Assembly (NCBI GenBank): GCA_030280995.1
Contig: JASXTE010000016.1
Coordinates: forward strand, 25,009,501 to 25,073,500
DNA from: Hemileia vastatrix
Lineage: Eukaryota; Basidiomycota; Pucciniomycetes; Pucciniales; Zaghouaniaceae
DNA: 64,000 bases
Reading direction: 5' to 3'
Position 1 is the stretch's first letter, and each line of letters opens with the position of its first letter. Positions 2,935-57,396 of this stretch are shown here, one piece after another. Position numbers and translations under genes: made by a program. Under the pieces are notes generated by a model. That model was not told the origin of the DNA. It was given only the letters and a program-made list of their open reading frames with translations, and made no database searches.

Positions 2935-4396
2935 TGTGGTACAGGCCTTTCAGGTAGCATAATTTTAGAACAATCAGTGCATGTAGTCCAGGAAGGACAA
3001 AGGGAGTTAGCGGAGTAGGTAGTGCTAAAATATAATATGTATTTGTGTGTTTCAAAGAACAAAGGAAATGGAAGCACGGAAAAGGATTAAAAGTCAGTGC
3101 GCTTGGATTTTACAGCGAGATGTGCCGCACAATGGGGAATTGTGTGTTATTGATTTAGTACTGTAAAACGCTAAACAATATGGATTTGGACTTTCCAATA
3201 ACTATGTTTTATGCATTAAGGAAGGAGTTATGGCTTAAGGATGACTCAAGTGCATAATATACTGCACCGCAGCTAGTTGGGTAGACTTACTGAAACAGGT
3301 AATAAAGGAGTCTAACTAGTAAAGTGAATTGTCAGAACTGGGTTGGTGAGCTCATATTTTGCAGCGAGATATGCGGCACAATGGGGAATAGTGTGTAATT
3401 GATTTAGGACTGCAAGCGCTGAACTATATGTATTTGTATTTTCCAATAATTGTTTGTTACACATGTAGGAACGAGTTATGGCTCAAGGACGACTCAAGTG
3501 CTTAGTATACTGCACTGCGGCTAGTTGGGTAAGCTTAATGAAACAGGTAATAAAGGAGGCTAACTAGTTATGTGAATTGTCAGAAATATGAACTTAGTAT
3601 TAAAAAAAGGAGAGTGGGGACTCAATCACAAAACTACCCAAGAGTCAAGGTGACTAGGATCAGCGTTAGAATGGGTCAAACCTGAAAGTAATGCTGAAAC
3701 ATAACAAAGGTATAGTCAAAAGTGCATATGTGGAGTATGAGTAAAACAAGTTAATACTAGTGTTAGTAATCATAGGGTATGTTTTAGGCGCTGTAAATGC
3801 AACAAGAAGTGTACGTAGTTGACTAATATATTAGTTATTGTTTTACTAATGTGGTTCTAGAGCCAGCGCTGGAGAGCCACTAGGGAGCTGTGTCTTGAGT
3901 ACTGGAAAAATATAAAAGGAGGACTATTTGATAGAGATAGGAGAGTCTTTTTGTAAGTAGAATATAAGAGGAATAGAATAAGTGAATTAGAGATATTTTC
4001 TGAGTCTTTTATCATTCCTGCGTCTGTGTGTATATTTCATATAGTATAGTGAAAAGAGCGCAACATAGAAATAATATATAGATTTAGCAGGATTGACTAT
4101 TATTAGAGTTATTTTATTGCTATAATAAGGCATATTCAAAGACAGTGCTTCAAGAGGGAGTAGCTGTGGATATTAGTGATTGTTAAGAATAGAAATATCC
4201 AGATAGTAATACTTGTTTTTCCTGATCTCTAAAACTCATCTCTAAACTTATAGATTTTCTAATCAAATATTAGTGTTACACATTATTTGGCTGTCTTTAA
4301 AAATAAGAGTGGTAGGCACTTCTTTTAAGAAATTGAAGAGGAGAAACAACCCATCTTGCATTGTGTCTACTGCTTAGTACTTTAGAACAGTCTACC
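2935..4396 (+). repeat. A2 5' LTR (1462 bp)
   Basis: It starts TGTGGTACAGG, right after the GCAA target copy, and ends TCTACC just before the primer site. It aligns with the 3' LTR at 14211-15424 and with A1's split LTR. It is about 250 bp longer than its partner because of an internal tandem duplication at 3105-3600. A candidate promoter region lies near 3890-3970, where the LTR copies share the block around GGAAAAATATAAAAGGAGGA (TATA-like). Confidence 0.88.
3105..3600 (+). repeat. Tandem duplication (about 249-bp unit) inside the A2 5' LTR
   Basis: Two diverged direct copies start at about 3105 and 3354. Each begins around CAGCGAGATRTGCSGCACA, and each runs through the landmark TATACTGCAC and the block AACAGGTAATAAAGGAG. 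The A2 3' LTR and the A1 3' LTR have one unit only. Confidence 0.85.
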
Positions 4397-4398
4397 AT

Positions 4399-4415
4399 TG
4401 GTGTCCCAACAGTGG
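4399..4415 (+). promoter_or_regulatory. A2 primer binding site
   Basis: TGGTGTCCCAACAGTGG follows the 5' LTR after two bases. It is a decayed form of the TGGTGCCCAACGTGGGG site of B and is like that of D. The leading TGG would pair with the CCA end of a tRNA that primes minus-strand DNA synthesis. I cannot name the tRNA. Confidence 0.75.
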
Positions 4416-4638
4416 CATAATTGTAACTAGTATTTTTTGATTAGATTGTTTTGTTTTTCAGGGCTTCGTCAAGAGGATGTAATCAAGCTGGTGCTTCAGA
4501 GGAAGAGTTGTAGGATCTACAACGAGTGAATCAATAGCCATTATCAGATGATAGCGTAGAGCTTTATTGTTAATATAGTCAGGTTTAATTACCAAGTGTG
4601 TGTTTTTGTGATCTCTGTTTCGATTTTATATTTCGGGA

Positions 4639-6960
4639 ATGGATCCTACTGCGACTACATCTAGGGAATGTCAGGAGAGGGTTAAATTGCCCAATTCTTT
4701 GGCATTGTTTCCAAAGATGGTAACAATGATTATTAGTTTTATAGATGAAAGATTGCGTTTTGAAGGCATTAATACCAAGAAGTTTTGATGCAGGTTTGAA
4801 CAAGCAACTGAATATGATATGGTGCGTCAAGTACTATTCTTTGTAACTAATGAATGCAAAGATGATTTAGAGGATCTAAAGGGGCATGAAGAGCAAAATT
4901 TTTCAGCGCTAAAAGATTAAAAGACCTTTTACAAATAAATGTGAAGCAGACATTAATTTAATTGGTCTTCCCTTAAGTTGATCTTTGCTGCTGTTACCTT
5001 TTACAAATAAATATGAAGCAGACATTAATATAATTGGTCTGCCCTTAAGTTGATCTTTGCCACTGTTACTTAACAAAGAAAATAATAATATTTGAGAGAG
5101 ATAAAAAGATAATAAGTAGGTAATAGCTAAAGACAAATCCTAACCTTTTACAAATAAATATGAAGCAGACGTTAATATAATTGGTCTTCCCTTAAGTTGA
5201 TCTTTGCTGCTGTTACCTATATACATTAGCTATAAGTTTTGATAGAATTAATAAAATGATCAATAGTCGGGATAAAAATTAATCCTGACCTAAAAAATAA
5301 AATAATAATATTTGAGTGAGAGAAAAAGTTGGGAAAACATTAGATAACCCAGAACATATATATTTGTATATCTCGCTCAACATGAATAAGCATCATTGAA
5401 CAGCAACACGCAAGAACGCCACTCAAATGTGGGCATGTCACTACACATGTGATAATAACATCTACTCATATATAAAAAAAATAAAAATAGAATTATAAGA
5501 TAGAAAATAGTAAAACACCTATTTGTTCATACAAAAGAACAGATTCTCAAGAGATGGCCAAAGGTTCCTGAGGAAACTAGGTATACAATGAAGGACCTGG
5601 ATATCTTGGTAAATAGGGTCAAAGCTAAAGGGGGTTTTTGAGACCCAAAGGAATTTAAAAGTTTTAGGGAAGACTTCAAACGAATAGTGGAATATTTAGT
5701 TAGGAATGAAGATTTTAGTGATGCTAATGCGTCTTTACCTTGGTTTTGTGAAGTGTTAGCACCAAACCTTGAAGACTGGGAAAAAAGGAGCTTGGATAAC
5801 AAAGGAAAGCTGGTTTAAAAAATGGATGGAAATTATAAGTACCCTGGATTAGAAGAAGTAGAAATGGCAGTGGAAGCTGAAATGGAGTTGCCTCAAGTTG
5901 AGCGTCGCCCAGCTAGGGTTGCTTTGGATAATGAGGAGATGAATGAAGATGCGTCTGGTGTACAATTGCCTCCTCAGATGTTGTCTCCTAAAGTCAAAGT
6001 TTTCACTAAGGAGCCAGATTCAGTTATGGCAAGAATTGATGAGTTGGAGAAAAAAGTAATTGAAGCGGCAAAGGCAAAAGAATTGTTTAGGCCCAAGAGT
6101 TTGCCTCAACCTTTGTGTTTTTCTGCTATGGTGTGCTATTATTGTAATAACCGGGGTCATAATAGGATGAGGTTTAATGTGCTTCAGTAAGATAAAGAGG
6201 AAAAGGTATTTTACGAGGACGGGACTACGCTTATGTTGGAAGACAGCACTAAGCTTGTTAAATACAAGGATTGAGGGATGCGAGCCATTGTCATCAATCA
6301 TATTAATAGAAAGTCTATGGAAGGCAGGTCTAGCAAGTGCAAAGAGCCTGAAATTAAAGAGAAAGGCAAGGATGCAAAGTCAGTCAACTTTGAAGTTACT
6401 TGCGCAGTGCTGGACTTTAAATTAAAAGAGGGAGCAGTTGCAGCACGTTTGGAGATGTTTGAAGCAAAGCACAAGAAAATAGCCCCAGCTACAATTACTA
6501 TGCCAAGAAGGACTGGCGCCAGGGATGTGAATCCAGAGGATATGGAGGAATTAGGGTATACTACTAGAGAGAATACACCTGCACCTATCGAGGCTTTTGA
6601 AATTGATGGTATGGAACCAGGTGGTTATGATGTGGATTATCAGGTAGAAGATCAAATGGAAATGTTGGAGGAGTCAGAGGTAGTACAGCAAAGAGCGGTA
6701 CCTGCTGAAGGAATGCCAGGAGCAAGGCATAAAACTCCAAAGAACCCACCTGGATGAGCGAAAGCTGGTGTGAAGGCTACTCAACCTAAATGGAGAATTC
6801 AGCGCCTGGTTCACTCTGATTTTCCTAAAGCGGCCAAGGATTTTCTTGTGCAATGTTTGAAGACTACAGTCTCTGTTCCATTGGGGATGCTGACAGCAGT
6901 AGTGCCAGATGTAGCAAATGGAATTGTGGATAATTGCAGGAAGCAAAGGATTGCTAATTG
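4639..6960 (+). pseudogene. A2 gag remnant with zinc knuckle, broken by an insert
   Basis: The frame starts at ATG 4639 (MDPTATTSRE). A region with a KKF...FEQATEYD pattern resembles the B gag start at about 31700 on the minus strand. It is interrupted at 4919-5540 by an unrelated insert and resumes at about 5550 (RWPKVPEE...). Stops occur near 4787 and 5817. The zinc knuckle at about 6130 reads CYYCNNRGHNRMR: the first Cys pair and the His are kept but the last Cys is lost. The C-terminal acidic, Pro/Glu-rich region (6278-6757) is still open. Gag would form the particle shell and bind the RNA; this copy cannot. Confidence 0.75.
4919..5540 (+). mobile_element. 622-bp insert in A2 gag with three 75-bp direct repeats
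   Basis: This AT-rich segment interrupts gag. Direct copies of AGATT flank it (4914-4918 and 5541-5545), a possible 5-bp target duplication. It holds three near-identical repeats of about 75 bp at 4923-4998, 4999-5070 and 5143-5218, each with GAAGCAGAC...TTAAGTTGATCTTTG. A second short motif (AATAATAATATTTGAG) occurs at about 5081 and 5299. It has no reading frame and no TG...CA ends. It could be a fragment of a nonautonomous transposon or an expanded satellite. The class is unknown to me and the borders are tentative. Confidence 0.45.
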
Positions 6961-7480
6961 AACTGAGTTTGATGTTGAAAAGCAGTCATTTCAGCCAGTT
7001 ATGGCATTAACTAGGGCGCCACATTATGCAGGACCCTTAGGGTATTTAACAATTACTGTAAATGGTAAGCAAATTAAAGCGTTAGTGGATACAGGTTCAC
7101 AAATCAATGTGGTGTCAGTGGGTGATGCTGGGGAGTTAGGTCTTCCTGTTAAAGATGGTTAGGGTACTGTTGCAGGAATTGGTGGAGGTAGGTTACCTGT
7201 TGTAGGTGTAGCAGAGTATGTATGCACTAGAGTTGTGGGAGCAACAAGGGATATACATTTTTATGTTCCAATGGGTGTAGTTAAACCAGTTTTAGGCATG
7301 CCATTTTTAATGGATTATTCTGCAACTATATATTATTGTTTGAATAAGACTATTGGAATATGGATTATGGGTGATTATGGTGTTCCAGTAACAGAAGTCT
7401 TAGTAGTGCTCTAGGATGGTGGCTGGGAAAATAAGTACTCTGGAGCTGCGCGGTTAGAGAAAGAAAGAGAATTTTATGAG
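6961..7480 (+). pseudogene. A2 retropepsin-type protease remnant
   Basis: An aspartic protease motif is visible: ALVDTGSQINVVS at about 7080, then GGIxGG-like glycine repeats (VAGIGGG) and a hydrophobic FYVPMG...LGMPFLMDY segment (about 7258-7315). This is the layout of the B and D proteases (VDSGSQINLIS...FLMDF). There are stops at about 7160 and 7412. The protease would cut the polyprotein. Between 7480 and 7860 the sequence is a degraded linker in which I cannot follow any frame. Confidence 0.78.
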
Positions 7481-7862
7481 GAAGTCTCAGATGACAAGAT
7501 AGGGAAACAGCCAGGAAGACGCCAATATTTTCATTAGGGACTGGGATTTTAGGTGTTACTATCTCCCAGGATGAGAGGAACTCGGATAGTGACCAGTCAG
7601 TCCAACAAGATGGGATACGTAAAGCGGTACTTCAAAGTGTCTTGGGAATACTACTGTAGAATGTATTATACCTAAGATTTTTAATTTCTTTGATTATTGA
7701 TAATGTTATGCTTATATTAAAAAGAAAATACCAAAACAGGATTTAGGTGCAACCCGTAGTTATATTAGAAAGGGTTGGATTTTAATTTATGAATAAAGCA
7801 GCAAGAGTTGTTTTTCAACAAAGTATAAACCAGTAGCCATTAAAGTTAAACCAGTTAGTGTA

Positions 7863-9073
7863 GTGATGCCTGATTTGAATCCTCCTTTGCAGAGGCCGGC
7901 GCTGTCCAGAAATACTTATGATACTCCTTTAACAAAGTTTCCGCCTGATTTTGTACCTACTAATAAGATTACGATGGAAAGTCTTCAGATTTTGGAGCAG
8001 AGGATTGGTTATCACAGGAAGAAAGGAAGTCTTTGTTACATGTTATGGTTTTTAGGCAAAATGCTATTGCGTTTTCAGAAGAGGAAAGAGGTTTGTTGAA
8101 ACACTCTTATGTTCAACCTTATATTGTTCCAGTTATACCTCATGAGCTGTGGCAGAAGAAGGCTTTTTTAATACCAGCGGCTATAAGAGAAGAGTATACA
8201 GAATTAATTAGGGGAAGGTTAAAGTCTGGCTTGTATGAACAGTCTATGTCTATTTATTCAAGTCCAGTGTCTTGTGTTGTTAAAAATAATGGTAAATTAA
8301 GGGTTGTTCATGATCTTAGGGATATGAACAAGGTTATGGTGAAGGACGCAGGAATGCCACCAACTCCAGAGGAGTTCATGGATTCTTTTGCGGGAGGTAC
8401 ATGTTATGGATTAGGTGATATTATGGGAGGTTACAATGAGCACAAATTGGATGTGTCATCCAGACCCATGATGACGTTTGAAACACCACTGAGGCCCTTC
8501 AGGTTGACAAGGTTACCGCAAGGCGCAACAAAATCTGTGGAGGTAGATCAAGCACAGATGATGTGGATATTGCAGGATGAAATTCCAGAACATGTGGGAA
8601 TTTTCATTGATGATGGAGGTATAAAACGACCAGCCAGTGATTATGATGGGGAAGTGTTAGAAGAGAATCTGTATATTAGAAAGTTCGTTTGGGAATATGA
8701 GATTACTCTGGAAAGATTGCTATTTAGGATAGAGGAGGCAGGATTAACAATTTCTGGGACCAAATTTGCCTGTTGTGTTCCAGCGCTTGATATAGTGGGA
8801 CATGTGGTATGCAAGGAAGGGAGAATTGTTACTAAAAAACAGGGGAATAAGGTACTTACATGGCCAAGACCAAGAAATACTAAGGAAGTTAGAGGGTTTT
8901 TAGGCATCTGTACATATGTAAGAATTTTTATTCAAGATTTTGCTTTGTTGTCTTCACCTTTACGGCGCTTAATGAGAAAAGATGTTGTATGGGATTGGAC
9001 AGAGGAATGCGAGGAGTCATTAAAGTTATTGAAAAGGATTTTAGGGAAAGATATTCTTTTGAAGAAATTGTAG
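7863..9073 (+). pseudogene. A2 reverse transcriptase
   Basis: The RT copies element RNA to DNA. The N-terminal segment (MPDLNPPLQRP, 7863) shifts frame near 8020 to the frame that runs to 9073. Landmarks are IPAAIREEY (8174), SGLYEQS, NGKLRVVHDLRDMN (about 8290), LTRLPQGATKS (about 8503) and the catalytic box GIFIDDGG (about 8598). This lineage has FIDD where most elements have Y-x-DD; B and D have the same, so it is not damage. The thumb motif EVRGFLGICTYVRIF lies at about 8887. A stop at 9071 (YG lost after KKL) separates RT from RNase H. Confidence 0.88.
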
Positions 9074-9450
9074 TATGGACAAGGTGCTGGGAAAATAACC
9101 CTAGAGTTGGATTCTAGTGTGTCTGCGGTGGGCGCTGTTTTGATGCAGGAGGATGAGGAAGGTAATGATAGACCTGTCATTTATGAGTCTAAGACTTTTA
9201 CTAAAGTGGAGTCCAGGTACTCTCAGTCCAAGCTGGAGTTATGCGGAGTAGTGAAAATTCTTAAGAAGCTTCAAAGAATGGTTTGGGGGCAACATTTTGA
9301 GCTGCAGGTTGATGCGCTATTGTTGGTGCAAATGATTAGTAGCCTGAGTTTACCAGATGTTCCCATGATGAGATTGGTAGCGCAGATTAATTTTTTTTCT
9401 TATGATTTAGTCCATAAGCCAGTAAAATCGTTCACTATGCCAGATTAATT
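9074..9450 (+). pseudogene. A2 RNase H
   Basis: This continues RT after the stop at 9071-9073. The acidic residues of RNase H are visible in LDSSVSAVGAVL (about 9107), KLELCGVVKIL (about 9230) and LQVDALLLV (about 9304). The tail VHKPVKSFTMPD corresponds to the HKLGKSFTMPD motif of B and D. A stop follows at 9446. RNase H removes the RNA strand of the hybrid. The connector 9450-9690 is degraded. Confidence 0.82.
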
Positions 9451-9688
9451 GTCATGAAGACCGTTGTGTTAAGAGGACTTGAAAGCAGAAGAATTTGAAG
9501 AAGATAAGAGATGGGTGAATGGGATAGATTATTGTTATGAAAGATTTGATAGTGACATCCGCAATGACAATAAACTAGCAGGCAGTATTGTCTGCGATTA
9601 CAATAAACTAGTAACGTGAAATGTCCGTAAAAATCAAAAACTAGATATTGACAATGAAAAGGATGTTTGTAGCAAGGGTAGTCTGCAA

Positions 9689-11134
9689 ATGGATTTAGGG
9701 GACGCTGAAGCTAACCAAGTGACTAGAAGTGTGCAGGGCGAGGTAGTGGAAGAGTCAGATGATGAAGATGATTCAAGGGTAAGTCATGACAGTAGTACTC
9801 ATCTTGAAGAGGGGGAGTATTTTGAAGACAACGCATCTACTGATGAGGGTGTAGTAATGTTAAGGTTACATTTGGAAGGTAGTAGTCAACCAGATTTTTG
9901 CAAAAAAAAAGTTTGGTGCAATATTAAGAAGCGCGCTAAGGGTTACTTTATTAAAAATGAGAAGTTATGGAAGAATCAAGCTTTGTCTCCTCAGTTAGTT
10001 GTTCAAACCTGGGAATGGAAGGAGAAGATACTCAGGGAGTTGCATGAGAATTTAGGACATAGAGGTCAAGATGAGACTTATCACAGAGTTAGGGAAAGAT
10101 TTTGATGGCCCAATATGAAGAATGAAGTAAGAAATTGGGTTAAATCTTGTCCTGAATGTCAGCGCAGGAGTTACAGAAAGCCAAAAGAGAAAAGTAGAGC
10201 TATGGGCGAAGATACTGTTATTGGTAGGGTCAGTTTAGATGCAGTTCATATAAAAGAAGGACACTTTAAATACTTGGTAGTGGCCAGGGATGATCTATCA
10301 GGATGGGTTGAAGCAGTGCCATTGGTAAATCTTAAGGAGAGTAATGTAGCTGAATTTTTGAAGAAAGAATGGATTTACAGGTATGGGGTAATGAAGATGG
10401 TAACCCTAGATGGTGGCGCTGAAGTTTCTGGAGAATTCCATGAGGTAGTAAATGGTATTGGTGCAAAGTTACGAGTTGCAACACCATATTATCCTGAAGT
10501 AGAGGGAATGATAGAAAGAGGGAATCAAGTTATAAAAGATGCGCTAGTTAAACTATGTTGAAATAATGGGGCAAAGTGGAAGAACTACTTTCCATTAGTT
10601 TTGTTTGTGGACAGGATTTCAGTTAAAAGGACAACAGGCTTTTCACCATATGAAATGATGTTTGGTCAAAGGGCGGTATTACCTATTGATATGGAGGCTG
10701 GATCTTTTCTAGGATGTGACTGGGATCAAGCGCGCTCAACTGAAGATTTGATTATAGAAAGGTTAGCGCAGCTTGAAAGGAAAGAAAAGTTTGTGGAGAA
10801 GGAGTATGAAAAAATGATGCAGATCCAGGAAAAGTCAGTTAAATATTGGGATGAGCGCTAAGAGCATAGGTTAAGAAAGCCATTGAACCCAGGAGATTTG
10901 ATTTTGGTTTATAATAGAAGTTTAGAAAGCCAATAGGGAAAGATGTTTTTTGACAGATTGAATGGTCCTTATAGGATAAGAAAGCAGATAACTGAAGGGT
11001 CTTACTTAATGGAGGAATTAGATGGTACTGAGTGGAAGCGACGTGTGGCTGCAGATCAGATCAAAAGATTCTACCCAAGGGGTGTTCCAGTGATACAATA
11101 TTACCTCCGGAATGAGAAAAAACTACCAGAATAA
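9689..11134 (+). pseudogene. A2 integrase
   Basis: The frames at 9689-10105, 10115-10561, 10601-10861 and 10943-11134 are in register apart from stops. Several of these are single-base, for example TGG to TGA at 10103-10105 where A1 keeps Trp. The HHCC zinc domain is LHENLGHRG...CPECQ. DDE residues are Asp in SLDAVHI (about 10235), Asp in LDGGAE (about 10408) and Glu in GMIERG (about 10513). The GPY/F-type motif NGPYRIRKQ is at about 10961. The protein ends with an IQYYLRNEKK tail and has no chromodomain. 4-bp target duplications go with this integrase type here. Confidence 0.86.
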
Positions 11135-11706
11135 TACCTCCGGGAAAAGGCTAAACTATCAATAATTTTTTATGTTTTTATGTTACCTCCGGGAAGAGGT
11201 TAAACTAACAAGTTATGTTAAGTTTTGTTTTTCTTAGAGGAATCACAGGAGGCTTTGACACAGTTGTGACAGATAGAGGGCGCTAACAGGAAGTTAGGCG
11301 GACTATGGCTGAGCAGGAAACTGGCATAAGCGCTTAGATGAGGGTGTAGAGGAAAATGAAATCTTATATTTTCATTGTTCGAGGGGACATGACGAGATAG
11401 GAAATTGGATTAAAGGAGATGTGTACCATGTAAAAGTAAAAGAGGCTGGGAATTTAGCTAATGCGTTAACTAAAGGAGTGATATAGTGAATTGTAGATGG
11501 GGTGCTCTACAGTTCAATTTTACATTTCATATTTCTGTATTGCAGTAAGGGGGGTGAAGTTTTATGATTTAAAAGGTTTATTTATGATTTTTAGGCTTTA
11601 CAGTCTTTTAAAGAAAGTAGAGGAGCAAAGTTAGGCGCTCTAAATTTAGAAGAAAAGTATTATGGAAGACAGGTGTAGTAAATAGCGCTATGTCTAAAAT
11701 GATTAT
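11135..11706 (+). other. A2 post-pol spacer with short TACCTCCGG repeats
   Basis: This is noncoding and homologous to 2141-2715. Three copies of a TACCTCCGGRA motif occur at about 11101, 11135 and 11183, the last two followed by a TTAAACTA-like block. It is probably the overlapping 3' ends of the pol (+) and beta (-) transcripts. I see no gene. Confidence 0.55.
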
Positions 11707-12587
11707 TTAAAGGCATAGTGTGAAAAATATATTAAGACTATGTACAGGGAGAATGGACAGAGGAGGCTCATAAAGAGAAGCGCTAGTGGGATATTCAGTA
11801 TCAGGGTGAAAGCTAATAGGATATGCTTTCCAGTCTTCAGGCATGACAAAGCTACAGGGATAGGTGGGGAATCCAAGAATAGTTGATGAGCTGATTTCTA
11901 TTATTAGTTGACCTATAATTTCTATATGGGTATAGCGAGCTTCAAGTTCAGCATCAGAAAAAGCTGGTGCATTAGAAGAGGATAGAGACATAGCGTCATA
12001 TATAAGACAAAGTCTGGAAAATATTTGCATGGAATGGACAAAGTGTAAAGGAATAGGAACTCATCCGAGGGCGATAGATTCATTGAAGCCTGAAAAGTAG
12101 TCAGTGGGAAAGGGGAGCATAAGTATAATGAAGGATACTTACTTGCTAATAAGTTTTGTGTGCGCGCTGATGGTGAAGTAATAGTAACTGCCTCAGGAGC
12201 AGCTGCAGTGGAGCCTGAGCAGATAGAAGCATTAGAACTTGGAGTGGAAGAAGGTGTAGCGCTAGGCCAAATAGATATTTTGCACCTGGGAAAACTAGGA
12301 AGCAATGATGATTCATAAGGAACATTATTATTAGTGGAAATAGTGGGACTAATGGTGGTAAATATGGGAGCGCTACTAGTAGAGCTAGGTGGAAAGCAAA
12401 TATAACCAGTAGTCTGAGGAGTTTTCTGGTTTAGAGAGATATTGCAAGTTTTGTGGTATCTAATGCAATTGTCACAGGCAGGTCTAAAGGGGGCATACCC
12501 CCAAGGTTTAGAAAATTTACAATGAAAGTTGGGGCACTTACAAAAAAAGCACGCTTGATCTTTGGGAACCGTACGATATTGAGTCAT
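11707..12587 (-). pseudogene. A2 antisense beta gene: Cys-rich protein, two exons
   Basis: Exon 1 is 12587-12143 and exon 2 is 12089-11707. The 53-nt intron (12142-12090) has GTAAGT and TTTTCAG ends, and splicing joins two otherwise separate frames, which supports it. The start is ATG 12587 (MTQYRTVPKDQ). The N-terminal 50 residues form a Cys-rich module: CFFCKC, HCKFSKPWG, then RPACDNCIRYHKTC. The last part resembles the CxxC...C spacing of fungal zinc clusters. A Ser/Thr/Pro-rich linker and a hydrophobic C-terminal domain (CLIYDAMSL...STILGFP) follow. One nonsense codon (TGA, just after the splice, where A1 has TGG for Trp) breaks it. Zinc or nucleic-acid binding is an inference. Confidence 0.72.
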
Positions 12588-13066
12588 GATATTTGGATGA
12601 AAAAGATCTAGGTTATTAGAAGGGCTATTTATAATATAACAATGGAATTATAGAGAAGTCATCAGTTGCACTATGTCTGACTTGAGCACTGGATGGTTTC
12701 TAAGAAGATAGTGAAAATTTTTTCGTCATGATGAAGGACCCAAGGAAAGGAAAATCTTTAGCAGTCGAGGGAAAGTCATATATTGCAAAGATCTGAAGAT
12801 TACAAGAGAGCGCATGCATATACAACGCAGGGGAAGTATTTGATGCTATAGAAAGTAGAAACGATCTCAAGTTGTTACTTTTTCGTTTCATCATCCATAG
12901 GCACTTAGTAGAAGGGTGCGGGGTTAGAAAAAGAATGATATTTTTTTTGAAGGCAACTAATCTTGCAGTTGTAGAATTTTCACAGGAAAATTAAGGGAAA
13001 GTAAAATTACATTTTTTTACAAGGTTATATACAATTTACAGGGAATATATAGAAGGAAGATTTTTA
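12588..13066 (+). other. A2 region between antisense genes, weak sense-strand ORF
   Basis: This stretch separates beta and alpha. A plus-strand frame from 12731 (MKDPRKGK...) is matched by a longer open copy in A1 (16220-16411). It has a stop at about 12796 here. It could be a small gene, an exon or chance. The upstream part (12588-12700) probably holds the promoter of beta. Confidence 0.35.
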
Positions 13067-14032
13067 TTATTCTGTGTCATCAAAGATTGGAACACAGAAA
13101 GCCCAGTCGTAAACAGCCTCTTGCATGTTTTGTTGCAAGGTGGTTATTAGCTGTTTTCGTTTATTATACTTGGCGCAAGTATAAACTGGGACCGCCTCGA
13201 GGAATCCTTCGACGGCAGTTAACATGTTGTTCATACAACGCATGGTAGCATCGTATGGAGCCTAGGCAATTTGCTCTGTAAATTCCCAGTTTTGAGCCAT
13301 GGCGGGCTGTTCTTCAATGACTTCCGGAAATGTTTTGATGGGCCATTTGTCCAGGTTTATGGTATCAAAGACTGGCTGCATAATTGTCCAGTCAGGAGTG
13401 GGTATACAAGGAGTACACTCCAGAAAAGGTTTGGTATGCCAGATGGGATCTTCTTCCAAGGCTGGAAGGAATAGAGGAACGTTAGGAGGCGGAGGCATTT
13501 CAGCATAAGGTGTGCCTGGCGCATTCTAAAAGAGGAAAAAAAGAGAATTTTAGAATTAGAAAAGGAAGAAGTAGGAAAAGAAGACTTACTGTACTCTCCT
13601 CTGAAAAGAGAGATCTTGGGATAAAAGCGAGGCCACTGGGTTTAGGTTTGCGGTAACCAACCTTGGCTCGTTTGTTGCCAGGTGGGGTAGTAGGAGCAGG
13701 TGCTGGGCGCTTGATGGTCATTTGACTTATCATATTAGTTGTGGAAGTGTTAGGTTCCAGGAATGCAACAGTGGGCAGCCCATTGTAACTACACTTATTT
13801 TTGCATTTCTTGCAGTAATTGCATGACTAAAAAAAAGGGGAAAGAAATGAAAGGTTAGTAACAATAAGGATGGAAAGTGAAGATAACTTACAGTAAAGAA
13901 ATTATTGCCATGGAAGGCTTTTGAGAAATGACAGGGAATTATGCCATTCTCAATACAGTGGGTTCATCTTGTCCCACCCATCAGTGTAGTTATGGGCGTT
14001 AATGGTACAGCAGAAGGGGGCTTAGTGCACAC
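13067..14032 (-). pseudogene. A2 antisense alpha gene: three exons, zinc-cluster-like
   Basis: The exons are 14032-13892, 13826-13590 and 13525-13067. The introns are 13891-13827 (65 nt) and 13589-13526 (64 nt), both GTAAG...AG. The start codon corresponds to the A1 ATG but is GTG here. Exon 1 lost a Cys codon to TGA. Exon 2 keeps a CNYCKKCKNKC-type cluster and a basic Pro-rich stretch (RPAPAPTTPPGNKRAK). Exon 3 encodes a conserved C-terminal domain (MAQNWEF..., CMNNMLTAVEGFLEAVP, ending VPIFDDTE) with one internal TAG at about 13262, where A1 has a Cys codon. I do not recognise the family. The Cys pattern and basic tract suggest nucleic-acid binding. Confidence 0.72.
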
Positions 14033-14200
14033 AAACTGTCAAATTGCTTTGACAACTTTGGCGGTATTTTCAGTGTTAGGATTAGTTTTTCCAGTATTCA
14101 TTGAAAGATATAAAGGAAAATAAGATAAGAAGATAGAAGATGGAGGAAGGAAACGCTGCAAGATGAAGGTATTTATGGGCTCCTGGGGACAGTCGCTAGT

Positions 14201-14210
14201 AGAGGAAGGA
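14201..14210 (+). promoter_or_regulatory. A2 polypurine tract
   Basis: AGAGGAAGGA lies directly before the 3' LTR. The same position in A1 reads AGAGGGAGGA (17751-17760). It would prime plus-strand DNA synthesis. Confidence 0.8.
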
Positions 14211-15424
14211 TGTGGTACGTGCCTTGCAGGTAGCATAATTTTAGACCAATCAGCGCACGTAGTCCAGGAAGGACAAAGGGAGTTAGCGCAGTATTTAGTG
14301 CTAAAATATAATATGTATTTGTGTGTTTCAAAGAACAAAGAAAATGGAAGCGGAGACAAGGATTAAGGGTCAGTGCGCTCAGATTTTTCACCAATATGTG
14401 CCGCACAATGGGGAATTGTGTGTTATCGATTTAGGACTGTAAAGCGCTAAAAAATATGGATTTGGACTTTCCAATAACTATGTGTTACAAATTAAGGAAG
14501 GAGTTATGTCTTAAGGACAACTCAAGTGCATAGTATACTGCTCAGCGGCTAGTTGGGTAAACTTACTGAAACAGGTAATAAAGGAGGCTAACTAGTTAAG
14601 TGAATCATCAGAACTATGAACTTAGTATTAAAGAAAGGAGAGTGGGGACTCAATCACAAAACTACACAAGAGTCAAGGCAACTAGTATAAGAGTTAGAAT
14701 GGGTCAAACCTGAAAGTAGCGCTGAAACATAACAAAGGTATAGTCAAAAGCGCATATGTGGAGTATGAGTAAAACAAGTTAATACTAGTGTTAGTAATCA
14801 TAGGGTATGTTTTAGGTTCTGTAAATGCAACAAGAAGTGTACGTAGTTGACTAATATATTAGTTATTGTTTTACTAATGTGGTTCTAGAGCCAGCGCTGG
14901 AGATCCACTAGGGAGCTGTGTCTTGAGTACTGGAAAAATATAAAAGGAGGACTATTTGATAGAGATAGGAGAGTCTTTTTGTAAGTAGAATATAAGAGGA
15001 ATAGAATAATTGAATTAGAGATATTTTTTGAGTTTTTTGTCATTCCTGCGTCTGTGTGTATATTTCATATAGTATAGTGAAAAGAGCGCAACATAGAAAT
15101 AATATATAGATTTAGCAGGATTGACTATTATTAGAGTTAGTTTATTGCTATAATAAGGCATATTCAAAGACAGAACTTCAAGAGGGAGTAGCTGTGGATA
15201 TAAGTGATTGTTAAGAATAGAAATATCCAGATAGTAATACTTGTTTTTCCTGATCTCTAAAACTCATCTCTAAACTTATAGATTTTCTAATCAAATATTA
15301 GTGTTACACATTATTTGGCTGTCTTTAAAAATAAGAGTGGAATGCACTTCTTTTTAGAAATTGTAGAGGAGAACCAACCCATCTTGCATTGTGTCTACTG
15401 CTTAGTACTTTAGAAAATTCTACA
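14211..15424 (+). repeat. A2 3' LTR (1214 bp)
   Basis: It starts TGTGGTACGTG and ends TCTACA, followed by the target copy GCGA. It carries the single unit of the segment duplicated in the 5' LTR. Alignment by eye shows many point differences from the 5' LTR, so the insertion is old. Confidence 0.9.
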
Positions 15425-15428
15425 GCGA

Positions 15429-16077
15429 GCTCCAAGTTCAGCTTCAGAAAAAGCTGGTGCGTTATAATAGGATAGAGACATAGCATCATATATAAGACAA
15501 AGTCTGTAAAACATTTGCATGGAATGAACAAAGGGTAAATGAATAGGAACCCATCCCAGGGAGATGGATTCATTGAATCCTGACAAGGAGTCAGTGGGCA
15601 AGGATAACGTATGTATAATGAAGGATACTTACTTTCTAATAAGTTTTGGGGACACCCTGATGGCAAAGTAATGGTAACTGTGTCAGGAGAAGCTGTAGTG
15701 GAGCATGAGCACATAGAAGTATTAGAGCTCGGAGTGGAAGAAGGTGTAGCGCTTGGCTGTATAAAAATTTTGCTCCTGGGAAAACTAGGAAGCAATGGTG
15801 ATTCTTAATAAACATTATTATTAGTGGAAATAGTGGGACTAATTGTGGTAACTATGGGAGCGCTACCAGTAGAGCTAGGTGGAAAGCAAATATAACCAGT
15901 AGGCTGAGGAGTATTCTGGTTTAGAGAGATATTGCAAGTTTTGTGGTATCTAAAGCAATTGTCACAGGAAGGTCTAAAGGAGGCATACCCCCAAGGTTTA
16001 GAAAATGTACAATGAAAGTTGTGGCTTTTACAAAACAAGCACACTTGATCTTTGGGAACAGTATAGTATTGAGTCAT
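15429..16077 (-). pseudogene. A1 antisense beta gene, N-terminal piece
   Basis: Exon 1 is 16077-15633, the intron 15632-15580 (53 nt, GTAAGT...CAG), and exon 2 runs from 15579 to the A2 junction. The start is ATG 16077 (MTQYYTVPKDQ). The Cys module is CLFCKS, HCTFSKPWG, SCDNCFRYHKTC. A TAA at 15805 replaces a codon that is open in A2 and is the only stop before the junction. Exon 2 keeps the Trp codon (SLGWVPI) that is a stop in A2, so the two copies together show that the spliced frame was once coding. The C-terminal piece is at 2716-2934. Confidence 0.72.
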
Positions 16078-16582: not shown

Positions 16583-17541
16583 TTAGTATTCTGCTTCATC
16601 AAGGATAGGGAGGCAGAAAGCCGAGTTGTTGACAGCCTCTTGCATGTTTTTTGCAAGGTGGTTAATAGCTGTTTTTTTTATTATACTTGGCGCTAGTATA
16701 AGCCGGGACCGCCTTGAGGAATTCTTTGATGGCAGTTAGCATGTTGTTCATACAACACATAATTTTATTGTATGAAGTGCAGGCAATTTTATCTGCAAAT
16801 TCCCAGTTTTGAGCCATGGAGGGCTCCTCATCATTGACATCCAAGAAAGTTTTGGTGGGCCATTTGTCAAGGATGATGGCATCAAAGACCGGATGCATTG
16901 TTGTCCAGTAAGTTGAGGGTATACAAGGAGTACACTCTGGATTAAGTTCAGTATCTCAGATGGGATCTTCTTTCAAGGCAGGAAGGAATAAAGGGATGTT
17001 AGGAGGTGGAGGCGTTTCAGCGTAAGGTGTGCCTGGCGCATTCTAAAAGAAAAAAAAAGAAAAATGTTAGCATAAGAAGAGAGAAAAAAAAAACTTACTG
17101 TGCTCTCCTCTGATAAGAGAGATCTTGAGACAGAAGCGACGCTACTGGGTGTAGGTTTGCGGCAACCAACCTTGGCTTGTTTGTTTCCAGGTGGGGTGGT
17201 AGGAGCAAGTGCTGGGCGATTGATGGTCATTTGACTCATCATACTGCTTGTAGATGCATTGGGGTCCAGGTGAACAACAGTGAGTGGCCCATTGTAACTA
17301 TACTTCTTTTTGTGTTTCTTGCAGTAATCACATGACTGCATAAGGAAGAAATGAAAAGTTAGTTATAATAAAGAAGGAAAGGAAAGTGAAGATAACTTAC
17401 ACTAAAAAAATTATTGCCACAGCAGGCTTTTGAGAAATTACATGGAGTTATGACTTTCTTGATGCAGCAGGTGCATCTTGTCCCACCCATCAGTGTAGTT
17501 ATTGGCCTTGCTAGGGGAGCAGAAGGGGGCTGAGTACGCAT
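16583..17541 (-). pseudogene. A1 antisense alpha gene: three exons, zinc-cluster-like
   Basis: Exon 1 is 17541-17401 (ATG, MRTQPPSAPLARP), with intron 17400-17336 (65 nt). Exon 2 is 17335-17099, with intron 17098-17043 (56 nt). Exon 3 is 17042-16583. Both introns have GTAAGT donors and AG acceptors and keep the frame. Exon 1 ends with RCTCCIKKVITPCNFSKACC. Exon 2 starts SCDYCKKHKKKYSYNG, so the Cys module spans the first splice. The second cluster has Tyr where A2 has Cys (KCSYNG). Exon 3 holds the MAQNWEF...CMNNMLTA domain. A TGA at about 16957 and a frameshift in the A-rich end near 16675 break it. Its order before beta is the same as in B. Confidence 0.75.
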
Positions 17542-18901: not shown

Positions 18902-19996
18902 GCGCGTAGTCCAGGAAGAACAGAAGGAGAGTTAGCGCCGTAGATAGTATTAAAATATAATATGTATTTGTGTGTTTCAAGAAAGGGAAATAGAAGAACC
19001 AAAAAAAAGGATATATGGTCTGTGCGCTTGGACTTTGCAGCGGGATGTGCCGCACAATGGGGAATTGTGTGTTATTAATTTAGGACCATAAGTGCTAAAA
19101 AATATGGATTTGGGTTTCCAATAATTGTGTGTTACGCATTAAGGAATGAGTTATGGCTTAAGGAAGACTCAAGTGCATAATATACTGCACTGTGGCAAGT
19201 GCTATAATTATTGAGACAAGTAACGTAAGTTTCAGAGTCTAATTAGTCAAGTAAATTACCAGGACTATCGACTAGTAATGAGGCGAGGAGCATGGGGACT
19301 CGATCACAAAAAAAACTACTCAAAAGTCAAGGCAACTAGGATCAACGTTAGAATGGGCCAAACCTGGAAGTAACACTGAAACATAACTAAGGTATAGTCA
19401 AGAGCGCCTATATGGAGTATGAGTGAAACAAGTTAAAAACTAGTGTTAGTAAGCATAGGGTGCAATTAGGTGCTGTAGTTTCTACAAGAAATGTACATAG
19501 TTTACTAATAGAATTGTTATTGTTTTACTAATGTGGCGCTAGAGCCAGCGCCAGAGATTCACTAAGGAACTGTGTCTTGAGCGCTGGAAAAATATAAAAA
19601 AGGAGGACTATACAATAAAAGAAGTACATTGAGTAGGAAAAAATAATAACAATTGACAAATAATTAGTTAATATACGATGTAGACAATCCTATAGTACTA
19701 GCTATAGGCCTTGACCAAGGGAGTTGGAGAAAAAATATAAAGAATAACCCCTGTCCCTTTAGAAAAACAAGTTAGATTTACCTGTTGCAGCAAATTGGAG
19801 ATCTGTTTTCTAGACCCTCTAATTAAACACACTTGACCCCTTTAAAAGTGAAGATAATAGTCCCAGACAGACTACCAGAAGGAGTTGAAATGAACAGTAA
19901 TATATGCCAACAAAAACAAGCCAATGAGAAAGTGAGGAACAGAGAGGCGATGAGTAAAGAGATAAGATTCTTCCCTAAAAATCTTCCCACACATGC

Positions 19997-21196: not shown

Positions 21197-21758
21197 ATGA
21201 CAACACCTGTCCATCCATACAGAACATCCTGCAATGTATGCCAATCTAGAAAGAAGACCTGCCACAGACCTGGTCCACTTTCTTCTGCAACAGATTCACC
21301 TCCACCTCAACCTGGGCCATCTTCTGCCAGCACAAAAAGGTCTAGGCCATCCATCCTGATACCCAGATTAATCAAAAAGCTTCACTCTTCCCAGTAGAGT
21401 GTCACAACCCAGAAAACAACTAGTTCCACCATCCCTGGTCCATCTGATGGTGAGAACATTCTTTTCTTCCTTCAACTTTAAAACTGATGACTTCTCAGTT
21501 CCTCCATCTTCTGATAGTGATGATAACAATGTAGGATCCATTGCACCACCAACACCAAGGCACTTGCCCACTATCAAGGCCAAGTTCCAACAACACACAT
21601 CTCAACACAAACAACTTCTGCTTCACTACTTCCAATCCACTCCTGCTAGAGATCCACAGGACATTGAGAACAGAAGACACCTCATTCACCAGTTCAAGGC
21701 TAATTCTGAACACTTTATTTCATCTCTTGATTCCCTCTGTAATTCCACTAGTACTTGA
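21197..21758 (+). pseudogene. B antisense gene 1 (alpha position): small Cys-rich protein
   Basis: It starts at ATG 21197 (MTTPVHPYRTSCNVCQSRKK). CNVCQSRKKTC is a C-x2-C-x6-C cluster like half of a fungal Zn2Cys6 domain. It is followed by a Ser/Pro-rich, basic tract (KRSRPSILIPRLIKK). A stop at 21395 and a frame change near 21440 lead to a second frame (to 21758), with an acidic stretch and a helical Gln/His-rich end (FQQHTSQHKQLLLHYFQS). This could be two exons of one gene or a broken gene; I see no clear splice pair. It lies nearest the 3' LTR, as alpha does in A. Its function is unknown. Confidence 0.6.
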
Positions 21759-21814: not shown

Positions 21815-22330
21815 ACCCTCAGTTTTAAGTTTTGGGGGACTATCCTCATTTTATAGTCTTGGAGGACTCAAAAACCCTCAGTTTAAAGTCTTGGGGGACT
21901 CAAAAACCTAAATCATAAACCCAGAACCAGAGATCAACCACATTAAGACACAGAGAAAAAACTAACATTCTGGGGTAATTGTAAATAGAGCAGCCAGCCC
22001 ATCAATTACCCCCAAACTTGCCTTTGCTAAATTCGGAGGCTCCCCCTGTGGATACCCTCCACCAATCTTTCAAAACAACTCCAACACAAAAACTTTTCCC
22101 TCAGTTTATAGTCTTGGGGGACTTACAACCCTCAGTTTAAAGTCTTGGGGGACTAACACAGTGTTCAGTTTAAAGTATTGACGGACTAGTCTTGATAAAA
22201 TCTTGAAACCAGCCAGTTTAAAGTCTTGGATGACTTCATACCATAGCTTTTTCAGTTTAGAGTCTTGATGGATTGATCTTAATACCATAGATTTTTCAGT
22301 TTAGAGTCTTGATGGACTGGCCGAATTTTG
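21815..22330 (+). repeat. Array of about nine AGTTTAAAGTCTTGGGGGACT units and a hairpin
   Basis: Copies lie at about 21820, 21853, 21877, 22101, 22133, 22165, 22211, 22252 and 22297, with small changes. Each contains a short AGTC...GACT inverted repeat. Related copies are at about 24740 and 25008 in B, and in reverse at about 60690 and 61488 in D. A stem-loop of the conserved type sits at 21972-22012. The array lies between antisense genes 1 and 2, where a terminator and a promoter would be expected. Confidence 0.75.
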
Positions 22331-22469: not shown

Positions 22470-24020
22470 ATGGCTGGATCTCCTGATGTTAACCCTTCTA
22501 CTCTCCCTTGCTTCACTGCTCCCAAGGACTATGCCTGGAAACAGTTCATCCACATGTGCAGACCTTGCACATTCACTCTTCCAACTCCTGAATCCAAATT
22601 CTACAACAGGGCTTGTGATTCTTGCTATTCCAAAAAGAAAAGATGTGACAGAGATTCCAACTACCCTATTCCTCCTTCTTCACCTTCCCACAAATACATC
22701 TCCAGAACTTGGTCCATCCTCTTCCTCTCTATCTTCTGCTCCTTCCAGAAGATCCAGAAGCTCAGCTTCCCGCACTCTTCCCAAAAGACCAGCATTAGCT
22801 TCACAAGAAACTGCTTTTATCTCTGCCAAATTAGCTCCAAAAGCTTCAAGATCAACTCCCAGGCTTCTAGACCGCATTTAGGCAGCCTGGCCGACATCGG
22901 GCGGCCTGCCCTCCTCACCAAACAGTGAAAATCAGGGCCAAAACCTCCAAAAACGGCCAGAAAACAGCCAAATTCATCCACAAAACAACAACAACTCAAC
23001 CAAACTACCTCCTACTGCTCCCAGAGTAATGCAATCAACCCTTCCAAGGTCCAAAAGCACCAAAATTTCCCAGATTTATAAGATACCTGGCAGAGAACCC
23101 CAAGAAGAAACCAGAACACCACACACTGCACCCAAACAACAACTTTGTCCCCAACTAAGACAAGGAAACTACACCTCTCCTCTGTCATCCAACTACTCTT
23201 CTGACAGTTCCATCTCTTCAAAAGCTCCATCCAGAAGAGATCAATCTTCTTCCAAATTCCCCTCTCCTGCTTTATCCTTTAACAACCCTGGTACTCCATA
23301 ACCAGCACCTCCTCCAGCTGAATCCAACAGAAATAACAACCACAACAACAACAACAATCCCACTTCTCCAACTAGGCCCCAGGAACATCAGCATCCCAGT
23401 TCACCCTCTCAGGATCCTTCAGAGGAAGACCATGAGAATCCATATCTTTCCCTAGTTGATCCACCCACTATGACCATTACAAAATCTTCAGAGATCCAAA
23501 TCCCAGCTGCTTACAGATTTGATGAGCTTCCAATCTGTAAGTACCAAATTAATTATCCCATTTCTTTAACAGAAATAATTACTGATCCAATTCTTCTTGT
23601 CTAGTTGGCACCCCTCCTCCTGAATCTATTATTGGAGTTGGCCAAACTCTTGAAACTTCTTTGACCCTGGATTATGGAGACATGAAGAAACACCTAAGCA
23701 CCATGTGTTCCAACATGATAAAAGCCTTTGTCCTCCATGGACCTTTGAATGACTTTGAAAAATCCCTGAGAAAGCGCCTGTTAGACGACCACTGGAAAAT
23801 TCCTAGGATCATTAAGCACACCCTCCATCACTCCATTCCTGCCTCTTCTTTTTCCTCCTCTGAACTTCCCTTTAATCCAATTCCTGATCATTACAATCTC
23901 TATCATCTCTCCAGCAGGATGCACTTCAAAGAACACAGTGCTACCCACAATCCCAACAAAAAACAAAAACGTCATCACAATCCGGACCAGCCTCCAGAAG
24001 CTTCATCATACAGAAAATGA
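22470..24020 (+). pseudogene. B antisense gene 2 (beta position): Cys-rich N-terminus, spliced
   Basis: It starts at ATG 22470. Residues about 15-55 hold APKDYAW, MCRPCTF and RACDSCYSKKKRCDRD, parallel to VPKDQACFFCKC...RPACDNC in the A beta protein. A frameshift near 22680 leads to a long Ser/Pro/Asn-rich frame with stops at about 22879 and 23299. A 68-nt intron (23537-23604, GTAAGT...TCTAG) joins this frame exactly to the last one. The end encodes ESIIGVGQTLETSLTL, a helical block (MKKHLSTMCSNMIKAF) and a Lys/His-rich tail ending at 24020. The frame kept across the intron argues for a real spliced gene. A GC-rich patch interrupts it at 22880-22915. DNA or RNA binding is inferred only. Confidence 0.7.
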
Positions 24021-39782: not shown

Positions 39783-39859
39783 GTATAATTTAATTCTCCG
39801 TAGTTCTCATTCTTTGCACTACTACGTCCCTTTTCAGGTTTTCTCTCTAAATTCTTAAA

Positions 39860-43192: not shown

Positions 43193-43234
43193 ATCTTCAA
43201 CGAATCAATTTTAACTACTCATCAACTTAATTCA

Positions 43235-45817: not shown

Positions 45818-45837
45818 AACTCTCTTTTTTTCTTTTC

Positions 45838-46630: not shown

Positions 46631-47351
46631 TTAAATACAAATTGTTTTTACATTCTTTTTCTTCTTTTGAACCAATCCCTTCATCTTCTCCAAAATTTCC
46701 CTTATCTCCTTTCTACATTTTTCAAGGATCTCCCCCTCTCCTACCGGAATCAATTCCCCAAGTTCAAGTAACTCCTCGGCTACGTCAAAGGAAGCGGCAT
46801 CGACAATGTTATCAATCTCGCCACTCAATTCTTCAATATATCTTGCTGGTCGAACCTGACGAGGTTTTTTCGACCATACTTGATCGAGGGTTTCTTCGTT
46901 TTCCTCCCTCGAGGTAACAGTTGGTAATCTATCTTCCACTGACACTTCCACCGCAATGGGCCCCACAAGGGTCGCTTCCACATTTAAAGCTTCTGTTTTA
47001 GGGGCCTCGATGATGACGTCTGAATTCTAAAAACAGAATCATTAGTAATTAAATTAATAAATTATAAAAGGGTGAACTTACTTCGAAGATTGGGTCAGGC
47101 TCCAAAAATAATCTATGAGTGACCTTCTCTGCCACCTCCCTTTCCTCTTCGTCATCTTCAATGATCAAACTTCATTTCTTCGGGGTTTTCCTCGAGATGG
47201 GAATTTCTTCCTTCTCTTCAACCAATTCATCAACTTCCTCCTTGACGACACCCCTCTTGTTCTCAGCCCTAGCCACCCAGATGTTCACATCATCTTCAAC
47301 TTCTTCCTCATTTTCCCCCACAGATTGATCGTCCCCAATGGACACATACCA

Positions 47352-56203: not shown

Positions 56204-56592
56204 TACCAGATGTCCTCGACTACTTCTTTTGTTTTAGGGATCACCCAATATTTCGTCTTAGTAAACCGACTTTCAATATCAGCATTCTTTGCTAAGGCGT
56301 CACACGCCACTCTTCTCCATTGGCAAAACTCGCACTTCTGGTGAGGCCCTTGTGTTGCCGTTCTCTCCACGCAGAAATACTCCATCAACTTTCAAGCCGT
56401 GCAAGTCTTCGAAAATTTCCGTGTGACAACACCCCCATCCGCTTTAGGGTGTGGAGGTGTGGGAGTTGGTGTAGGGAAATCTGTCATAATGAATTAAAGT
56501 AATAAAATAATAAATAAGTAAATAGGAAGAGAAATTAGTGTGGGAAATATGTTTTACGCTCAACAGAGCTTGTGTTCTTATACCTGGGCATC

Positions 56593-57396
56593 TGTCACGC
56601 GCCACTTGACACTCAAGGCAAAAGTGGCTCATTAAATTAATACTAAAGGGTTCAAATCCATACTCGAAGCACAGAAAGCAACTCTCCATAGCAACTGCGA
56701 CTTTCCTTTGTGTACTTGCTATTCAAGTGCGCTAGCCTAAAACTCTAAATCTAAACTAGTCAATCTCTCAATAGTGTGTCTTAGTCTTTTTTCCAATAAG
56801 TGACGCACAGTGCAATAGTTAATATAATAGTACATTAAAAGGTTCATGAAATTTCTGTGGGTTATTAAGGGGTAGTGAGCATGGACGGAATGGTTAGTGA
56901 AGGATTAAGGGGGTTGACGGATGTTAGTGAGGAGGGTCCAAGTGTAACGGATATATTTTAAATGGTTTGTGGTGTGCAGAATGGTGGATGAGTATTAGGT
57001 CAATGAGAGGAGGAGTAAAGGATATAAAAGGGGCTGGGTTTTTGGTTCGACATTCTTTAGAATTAAATTATAAAACATATTTATAGTTAATAGGGATAAA
57101 ACTCTAAGTGGAAAACATTATTATTGTATCTTTCTTTATTTTCTCAATTATCATATCTAAATCCTAAATCTTTGATTGTTGAGTTTCCAACCCTTCGTGA
57201 GATCTTAAGAATTTTAATATTACCATTCAATTATATTAGAATCCTTCTCAAACATAACTCGAAGCAGTAGTTCTTCCTTCGAGTCATCTTCAAATCACTT
57301 CCTCGAACTATCCCTCTGTGCTTTGAAGAAGTATCTGAACCTTTTATCTCACTTGCAGGAACATCCTCAACCTTGTGCGTAGGTCGTCTGGTGACA
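56593..57396 (+). repeat. E 3' LTR (804 bp)
   Basis: It starts TGTCACGCGCC and ends GTCTGGTGACA, then the ACAAG target copy. It aligns over its whole length with 38978-39782 with scattered changes. The 56488-56592 stretch before it holds no obvious polypurine tract and is probably the upstream region of the antisense gene. Confidence 0.9.

What the first reader, a model, noticed from the sequence alone, without database searches (positions are those of the whole stretch)
11707..14032. Spliced antisense Cys-rich genes carried by three gypsy families between integrase and the 3' LTR
Seen: in A (A1 and A2), B and E, genes on the strand opposite to pol start near the 3' LTR and run toward the end of pol. 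They have 53-68-nt introns with GTAAGT donors, and splicing joins separate frames in the A beta gene, in B gene 2 and in E. Each has an N-terminal Cys module ending in a C-x2-C-x5/6-C cluster (ACDNCIRYHKTC, ACDSCYSKKKRC, CEFCQWRRVACD, SCDYCKK). A and B have two such genes in the same order. Known: antisense extra ORFs exist in some plant LTR elements (for example Grande). Inference: these are accessory nucleic-acid-binding proteins that control the element or its silencing. This is the best candidate for an undescribed system here.
Basis: partly seen in the sequence, partly recalled or inferred. Interest (0 to 1): 0.88.

Follow-up and report, generated by a model that had tools for sequence, protein, structure and literature searches.

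The report
Antisense cysteine-rich genes in fungal retrotransposons
Two kinds of jumping gene in a fungal genome, probably a rust, carry backwards-facing genes with introns beside their far end, and these look like old zinc-binding control proteins, although every copy here is now broken.

Summary
Their introns are 49-68 nt and mostly start GTAAGT. In all six frames a six-cysteine pattern hits only alpha of A2 and A1; a five-cysteine pattern adds only B gene 2 and F. None of 150 random windows has either. A alpha and B gene 2 are probably homologous (BLASTP E 4e-4 for A1, 0.009 for A2). A1/A2 indels avoid exons (2 in 1,393 versus 9 in 886 bases, p=0.005), and an 8-nt length change sits harmlessly inside a beta intron. 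dN/dS is weak evidence: only beta lies below 1. All copies are broken; expression was not testable. F shows no sequence homology to A/B. Two searches found no relatives; Pfam's zinc-cluster model matches below its cut-off. Best reading: decayed antisense accessory genes for zinc-binding nuclear regulators of their own element, a new variant of a known kind (plant aORF-3R, Botrytis brtn).

The parts
11707..12587 (-). A2 alpha gene: exon 1 12587-12143 (Cys module 12551-12444), intron 12142-12090, exon 2 12089-11707; one in-frame stop in exon 2
13067..13981 (-). A2 beta gene: exons 13981-13892, 13826-13590, 13525-13067; introns 13891-13827 (65 nt) and 13589-13526 (64 nt); two in-frame stops
15425..16077 (-). 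A1 alpha: same Cys module and 53-nt intron (15632-15580); stop in exon 1, and cut by the A2 insertion at about 15424
16586..17490 (-). A1 beta (ends taken from the alignment to A2): introns 17400-17336 (65 nt) and 17098-17043 (56 nt); stop and two 1-nt gaps in exon 3
21197..21758 (+). B gene 1: single C-x2-C-x6-C cluster, 49-nt intron 21450-21498, one in-frame stop in exon 1
22470..24020 (+). B gene 2: N-terminal Cys module 22557-22646, low-complexity middle (frame change near 22.7 kb and in-frame stops), 68-nt intron 23537-23604, C-terminal exon to 24020
56593..56689 (-). F first Cys-module ORF (C-x2-C-x19-C-x2-C-x6-C); starts inside the 3' LTR and runs past its edge at 56593; possible donor at 56583
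56204..56487 (-). F second Cys-module exon (contains CEFCQWRRVACD), one in-frame stop, cut by insertion of element E at 56203; own ATG at 56487
46631..47351 (-). F downstream part beyond element E: acidic stretch with one in-frame stop, 55-nt intron 47081-47027, C-terminal exon 47026-46631
2935..15424 (+). element A2 that carries alpha and beta (LTRs about 2935-4396 and 14211-15424), inserted into A1

Best explanation
The frames are remains of real, spliced, protein-coding accessory genes carried by two gypsy lineages: A/B (no chromodomain found in B's integrase end) and F (chromodomain). They are read from the 3' end of the element against pol. Inferred mechanism: a promoter in or beside the 3' LTR drives an antisense mRNA, introns are removed, and the N-terminal Cys module binds zinc and contacts nucleic acid, probably the element's own LTR or RNA. 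The product then tunes transcription or silencing of the element, in the manner of HTLV-1 HBZ. Shown here: strand, place, intron-like structure, Cys spacing, probable A-B homology, indel avoidance, present-day decay. Inferred: transcription, splicing in the cell, zinc binding, nuclear target, regulatory role. The antisense layout also explains why introns survive: the genomic RNA is sense, so the antisense introns cannot be spliced out of it before reverse transcription.
For: Motif scan: 6-Cys pattern only in alpha A2/A1, 5-Cys pattern adds only B2 and F, 0 of 150 random windows. A1 alpha vs B2 BLASTP E 4e-4, the only A-B pair that strong on either strand; A2 alpha vs B2 E 0.009. Smith-Waterman against B2: as good in 2 (A1) and 6 (A2) of 2,000 shuffles, and in 3 and 21 of 2,000 with Cys kept in place. 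A profile of alpha+B2 picks B1 as the only non-member of 1,895 window peptides above the inclusion threshold (E 0.0027; 0 of 1,000 shuffles). Indels: 2 in 1,393 exon bases vs 9 in 886 others, p 0.0046; the 8-nt difference in beta intron 2 leaves the downstream frame aligned. Substitutions: alpha exons 10.6%, spacer 20.0%. Beta dN/dS 0.61 (0.42-0.97). GTAAGT 9 antisense vs 2 sense. Zn_clus is the only Pfam family touched; LAC9 is the only PDB hit for the one piece tried.
Against: Every copy is broken, so present function is excluded for these copies. Alpha dN/dS is not below 1 with confidence, and several shifted or reversed frames give similar ratios. Alpha dS is itself low (0.137), so its low divergence may not reflect protein constraint. 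Three low-complexity A1-F pairs reach E-values as good as the alpha-B2 pair (4.5e-5 to 3.1e-4), so that E-value alone is not decisive. Zn_clus hits are below the gathering score. The AlphaFold model is useless (mean pLDDT 33). F has no sequence similarity to A/B: 95-937 of 1,000 shuffles score as well. Spliced beta resembles the alpha/B2 profile only weakly (12-43 of 1,000 shuffles as good). No relatives were found in two protein searches. D and E lack the genes. No transcript data.
Confidence: 0.55

Rival explanations
1. The antisense genes are real and translated, but act as anti-silencing or nuclear-import (pre-integration complex) proteins rather than as DNA-binding transcription regulators.
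For: They evolve fast next to pol (A-B alpha module about 38% identical; RT pieces 72%), as arms-race factors do; Grande's antisense protein is nuclear and a role of such proteins in reaching the nucleus has been discussed (PMC7264820, section 7 read).
Against: The only family resemblance is to a DNA-binding zinc cluster, though below cut-off. No nuclear-import or silencing assay can be run here.
Confidence: 0.23
2. The antisense transcript works mainly as RNA (double-stranded RNA or lncRNA that silences the element); the frames are secondary.
For: In Blumeria hordei 823 lncRNAs come from TE antisense strands (PMC10648671, abstract read). All frames here are broken.
Against: An RNA-only role does not predict Cys-pattern conservation, protein-level A-B similarity without comparable DNA similarity in this region, or indels confined largely to introns and spacers.
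Confidence: 0.13
3. Captured host genes or chance antisense frames without any role in the element.
For: D and E do without them. The dN/dS signal is weak.
Against: Same strand and place in A and B with probably homologous products; 0 of 150 random windows with the pattern; donors and acceptors kept in both A copies.
Confidence: 0.09

Closest known systems
Boty brtn antisense gene (Botrytis cinerea gypsy element, Zhao et al. 2011; that paper not seen, only its mention in PMC7264820 and PMC8365987)
   Different: Ascomycete. No passage I saw mentions introns, a pair of genes or a Cys module in brtn; its sequence was not compared here
Plant aORF-3R (maize Grande gene23, rice RIRE2, Silene Retand with TRP28; PMC7264820 abstract and sections 5, 7, 8; PMC11963269 abstract and passages)
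   Same: Same location and strand, kept across copies and species, proposed nuclear or DNA-binding role
   Different: Here two genes per element in A and B, with 49-68-nt introns and a Cys module. The words 'intron' and 'zinc' do not occur in the main text of PMC11963269
HTLV-1 HBZ (PMC1459196, abstract read)
   Same: Antisense, spliced; first exon may lie in the 3' LTR (F only); regulator of its own element's transcription (inferred here)
   Different: HBZ is a bZIP protein (PMC3391691, seen in listing) of a retrovirus; here a Cys module in Ty3/gypsy elements; transcription not shown
Fungal Zn(2)-Cys(6) cluster proteins (Pfam PF00172)
   Same: alpha spacing C-x2-C-x6-C-x14-C-x2-C-x6-C is close to the family pattern (pattern recalled, from no call)
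   Different: Below the Pfam cut-off; B2 has five of the cysteines and B1's open frame three; fold not obtained

Membership tests
Antisense additional ORF between pol and 3' LTR (aORF-3R) | coding frame antisense to gag-pol, between pol end and 3' LTR | tested here: met
   A2, A1, B, F by coordinates. F's first module additionally starts inside the LTR
Antisense additional ORF between pol and 3' LTR (aORF-3R) | present in most copies of the family | tested here: inconclusive
   2 of 2 A copies, 1 of 1 B, 1 of 1 F in this window, absent in D and E; own-genome search did not complete
Antisense additional ORF between pol and 3' LTR (aORF-3R) | antisense transcription | not testable with these tools
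   no RNA data
Fungal Zn(2)-Cys(6) cluster (PF00172) | six cysteines in family spacing | tested here: inconclusive
   met by alpha A2 and A1 only; A1 beta by eye has five of six with x7; B2 has five; B1's open frame three. Family spacing recalled
Fungal Zn(2)-Cys(6) cluster (PF00172) | score above Pfam gathering cut-off (21 bits) | tested here: not met
   14.4 (B2) and 10.9 (alpha) bits; the other 8 of 10 pieces no hit
Fungal Zn(2)-Cys(6) cluster (PF00172) | binuclear zinc fold | tested here: inconclusive
   AlphaFold mean pLDDT 33 with 3 sequences
HBZ-like antisense LTR gene | first exon in 3' LTR and splice into internal region | tested here: inconclusive
   F: ATG 56689 lies 97 nt inside the LTR, donor-like GTATAA at 56583, 103-nt intron candidate to 56481; an alternative ATG at 56487 needs no such splice. 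Not so in A or B
Gag zinc knuckle (CCHC) supplied in trans | CX2CX4HX4C-type motif | tested here: not met
   the only match in six frames to a relaxed CCHC pattern is F's own gag at 40961, none in the antisense genes

The most novel reading that the evidence does not exclude
Two separate gypsy lineages in one fungus (A/B and the chromodomain element F) each carry antisense zinc-cluster-type regulators read from the 3' LTR side. This would be a retrotransposon-encoded class of transcription-factor-like proteins, parallel to retroviral HBZ and arrived at independently, whose introns are protected because they lie antisense to the genomic RNA.
Probability: 0.3. Interest if true: 0.75.

Novelty: new variant of a known kind. 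Interest (0 to 1): 0.52.

Why it matters
Antisense extra genes of LTR elements are described mostly from plants, and the review read here states no known function for them (PMC7264820). Spliced Cys-module genes in pairs, in fungal elements, would give a defined domain to test. They would also show how a retrotransposon can keep introns through its RNA stage. If the proteins bind their own LTRs, these elements regulate themselves, which would bear on how such elements build up in fungal genomes.

Tried and rejected
Nucleocapsid-in-trans idea: rejected, no CCHC in the antisense genes and F's gag has its own; by eye A and B gag carry degenerate knuckles. Chance frames: disfavoured by the motif scan and indel placement. 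RNA family: 0 Rfam matches at gathering score. Structure: one job, mean pLDDT 33, so no fold search was run. Relatives: phmmer of the A2 alpha frame, 169 candidates, none at E up to 0.01; profile of alpha A2, alpha A1 and B2 pieces, 161 candidates, none at E up to 10. Both searches see only relatives sharing 5-residue words and of similar length, so absence is weak evidence. Viral contigs: 2 of 8 scans used (E pol, alpha), no relative. NCBIfam (8 pieces): two chance-level hits only. PHROGs (5 pieces): none. Literature for antisense zinc-cluster genes in fungal LTR elements: the ten answered searches showed no such report in the rows listed; some listings were capped. One search (Zn2Cys6, LTR retrotransposon, antisense, open reading frame together) found 0 papers. 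Own genome: not completed, so copy number and dN/dS across many copies are missing.

It is weaker for A2 than for A1, and low-complexity pairs reach similar E-values, so I now say 'probably homologous' and lowered the main confidence from 0.58 to 0.55.

Paper use: PMC7264820 abstract and sections 5, 7, 8; PMC11963269 abstract and passages; PMC8365987 passages; PMC1459196 and PMC10648671 abstracts; PMC3391691 in a search listing.

Full report
What the window is. It is a nest of Ty3/gypsy elements. A2 (about 2935-15424) sits inside A1; A1's right part runs from 15425, and its 3' LTR is itself split by a copy of B's LTR. B (minus strand) has LTRs at 19991-21070 and 31928-33020. D has LTRs 34224-35583 and 61976-63295 and is interrupted by F (38978-57396, flanking repeat ACAAG), which in turn is interrupted by E (47352-56203, flanking repeat TACCA, LTRs 99% identical). 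A, B and D form one lineage (RT pieces 69-78% identical). F and E carry a chromodomain by Pfam; F/E compared with A/B/D pieces are mostly 22-34% identical (20-residue matches reach 40%). Among the 120 best of 651 relatives of E's pol, the best named is from Puccinia striiformis (47%), many are from Austropuccinia psidii, and an unnamed-source protein reaches 60%. The host is therefore probably a rust or a near relative; it is not identified.

The observation. In A2 the minus strand between integrase and the 3' LTR holds two genes. Beta (13981 to 13067) has three exons and introns of 65 and 64 nt; alpha (12587 to 11707) has two exons and a 53-nt intron. All three introns start GTAAGT and end AG. 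A1 keeps all six splice borders, with lengths 65, 56 and 53. The 64 versus 56 difference is not a multiple of three, yet the third exon stays in the same frame in both copies, as expected if the intron is removed. B has B1 and B2 in the same order seen from the 3' LTR, with introns of 49 and 68 nt that join frames. F has two Cys-module frames near its 3' LTR, one of which starts inside the LTR, plus a further spliced part beyond element E.

More than chance. Across all six frames of the 64 kb, the pattern C-x2-C-x6/7-C-x5/16-C-x2-C-x6/8-C occurs twice, in alpha of A2 and A1. The looser C-x2-C-x5/24-C-x2-C-x6-C adds only B2 and F's first module. None of 150 third-order Markov windows had a match to either. 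The pattern bounds were set after seeing alpha, so this is a guide, not a strict test. GTAAGT stands 9 times on the antisense strand of these stretches and twice on the sense strand, 1.35 expected; 7 of the 9 are in the homologous pair A1/A2, and one of those 7 (12541) is not a donor.

Homology. A1 alpha and B2 align over 58 positions at E 4e-4; A2 alpha and B2 at E 0.009. No other A-B pair on either strand reaches 4.2e-4, but three low-complexity A1-F pairs do (4.5e-5 to 3.1e-4). Smith-Waterman scores against B2 are matched by 2 (A1) and 6 (A2) of 2,000 shuffles, and by 3 and 21 of 2,000 shuffles with Cys held in place. blastn of the same stretches gives only scattered 14-34-base A-B matches at E 0.095 or worse. 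A profile of alpha and B2 also finds B1, by the second half of the module (E 0.0027). Spliced beta scores only a little above shuffles (12-43 of 1,000 as good), and F's two modules not above them (95-937 of 1,000). So A and B probably share an inherited gene; beta is a possible paralogue; F is similar in cysteine spacing and place only.

Selection. Between A1 and A2, alpha exons differ at 10.6% (64 of 604), beta exons 16.4% (129 of 787), introns 15-18%, the stretch before beta 18.4% (42 of 228), the alpha-beta spacer 20.0% (95 of 475), and the stretch from late RT to alpha (8937-11936, pol plus non-coding) 11.5% (337 of 2,920). Indels: 2 in 1,393 exon bases and 9 in 886 others (p 0.0046). dN/dS is 0.61 (0.42-0.97) for beta and 0.76 (0.45-1.45) for alpha, and several shifted or reversed frames give comparable ratios, so this test alone would not convince. 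Integrase pieces, as a control, show an equally weak codon-position bias (24/15/25 and 13/12/12 changes), so the old decay of the copies blurs the test for pol too. Stops lie in alpha and beta of both copies.

What the proteins may be. Of ten pieces scanned, two touch Pfam, both at Zn_clus and both below its cut-off (14.4 and 10.9 against 21 bits). The only PDB sequence hit, for the one alpha piece tried, is the zinc-cluster protein LAC9 at E 0.69. NCBIfam gives two chance hits at similarly weak levels, so these are hints. The fold could not be predicted. Membership in the Zn(2)-Cys(6) family is therefore not claimed; zinc binding through paired C-x2-C is an inference.

How it may work. Inferred: antisense transcription from the 3' LTR side, splicing, and a small zinc-binding protein that controls its element. 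Grande and HTLV-1 show that such antisense promoters and regulators exist (PMC7264820 section 8; PMC1459196 abstract). Because the genomic RNA is sense, antisense introns are not removed from it and pass through reverse transcription; this fits introns being found in these genes. The genes evolve fast next to pol (38% in the A-B module, against 72% in RT), which would also suit a role against host silencing.

Absence. D gives no Cys-pattern hit, and what aligns with B between pol and the 3' LTR is mainly the repeats that flank B's genes, so a deletion between repeats is possible. E has only about 120 nt between pol and its LTR. The genes are therefore not essential to every element here.

Novelty. 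Antisense extra ORFs at this place are known in plants and in Botrytis Boty. The pairing, the introns in several families and the Cys module are what seems new; the answered paper searches listed in Tried and rejected showed no report of them, within an open-access library and capped listings only.

Noticed in passing
21971-22013, 24832-24874, 25094-25136 (B); 60575-60617, 61379-61420 (D): A repeated hairpin-forming unit (GGGGTAA...TTACCCC arms, with variants) sits between pol and B2 and between B2 and B1 in B, and twice after pol in D; recombination between such repeats could have removed D's antisense genes.
   Followed up: partly
21817-22318: Nine copies, some diverged, of a 25-base unit (CCTCAGTTTAAAGTCTTGGGGGACT) between B1 and B2; single copies near 25001 and 60684.
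   Followed up: no
11098-11207 and 2136-2196: Short repeats of a TAGTTT...GGTA unit after pol in A2 (three copies) and A1 (two copies), minus strand; one weak match at 25251 in B.
   Followed up: no
47352-56203: Young element E (LTRs 99% identical) with gag, pol and the integrase end in one frame separated by two single in-frame stops; the 181-aa antisense frame over its pol has no Cys pattern.
   Followed up: no
34568-34892 and 62279-62641: 19-base tandem repeats inside both LTRs of D.
   Followed up: no
12633 (A2) and near 14178 and 17726: TATAAATAG 46 nt before the alpha start in A2; by eye a TATA-like stretch before beta in A2 and A1.
   Followed up: partly
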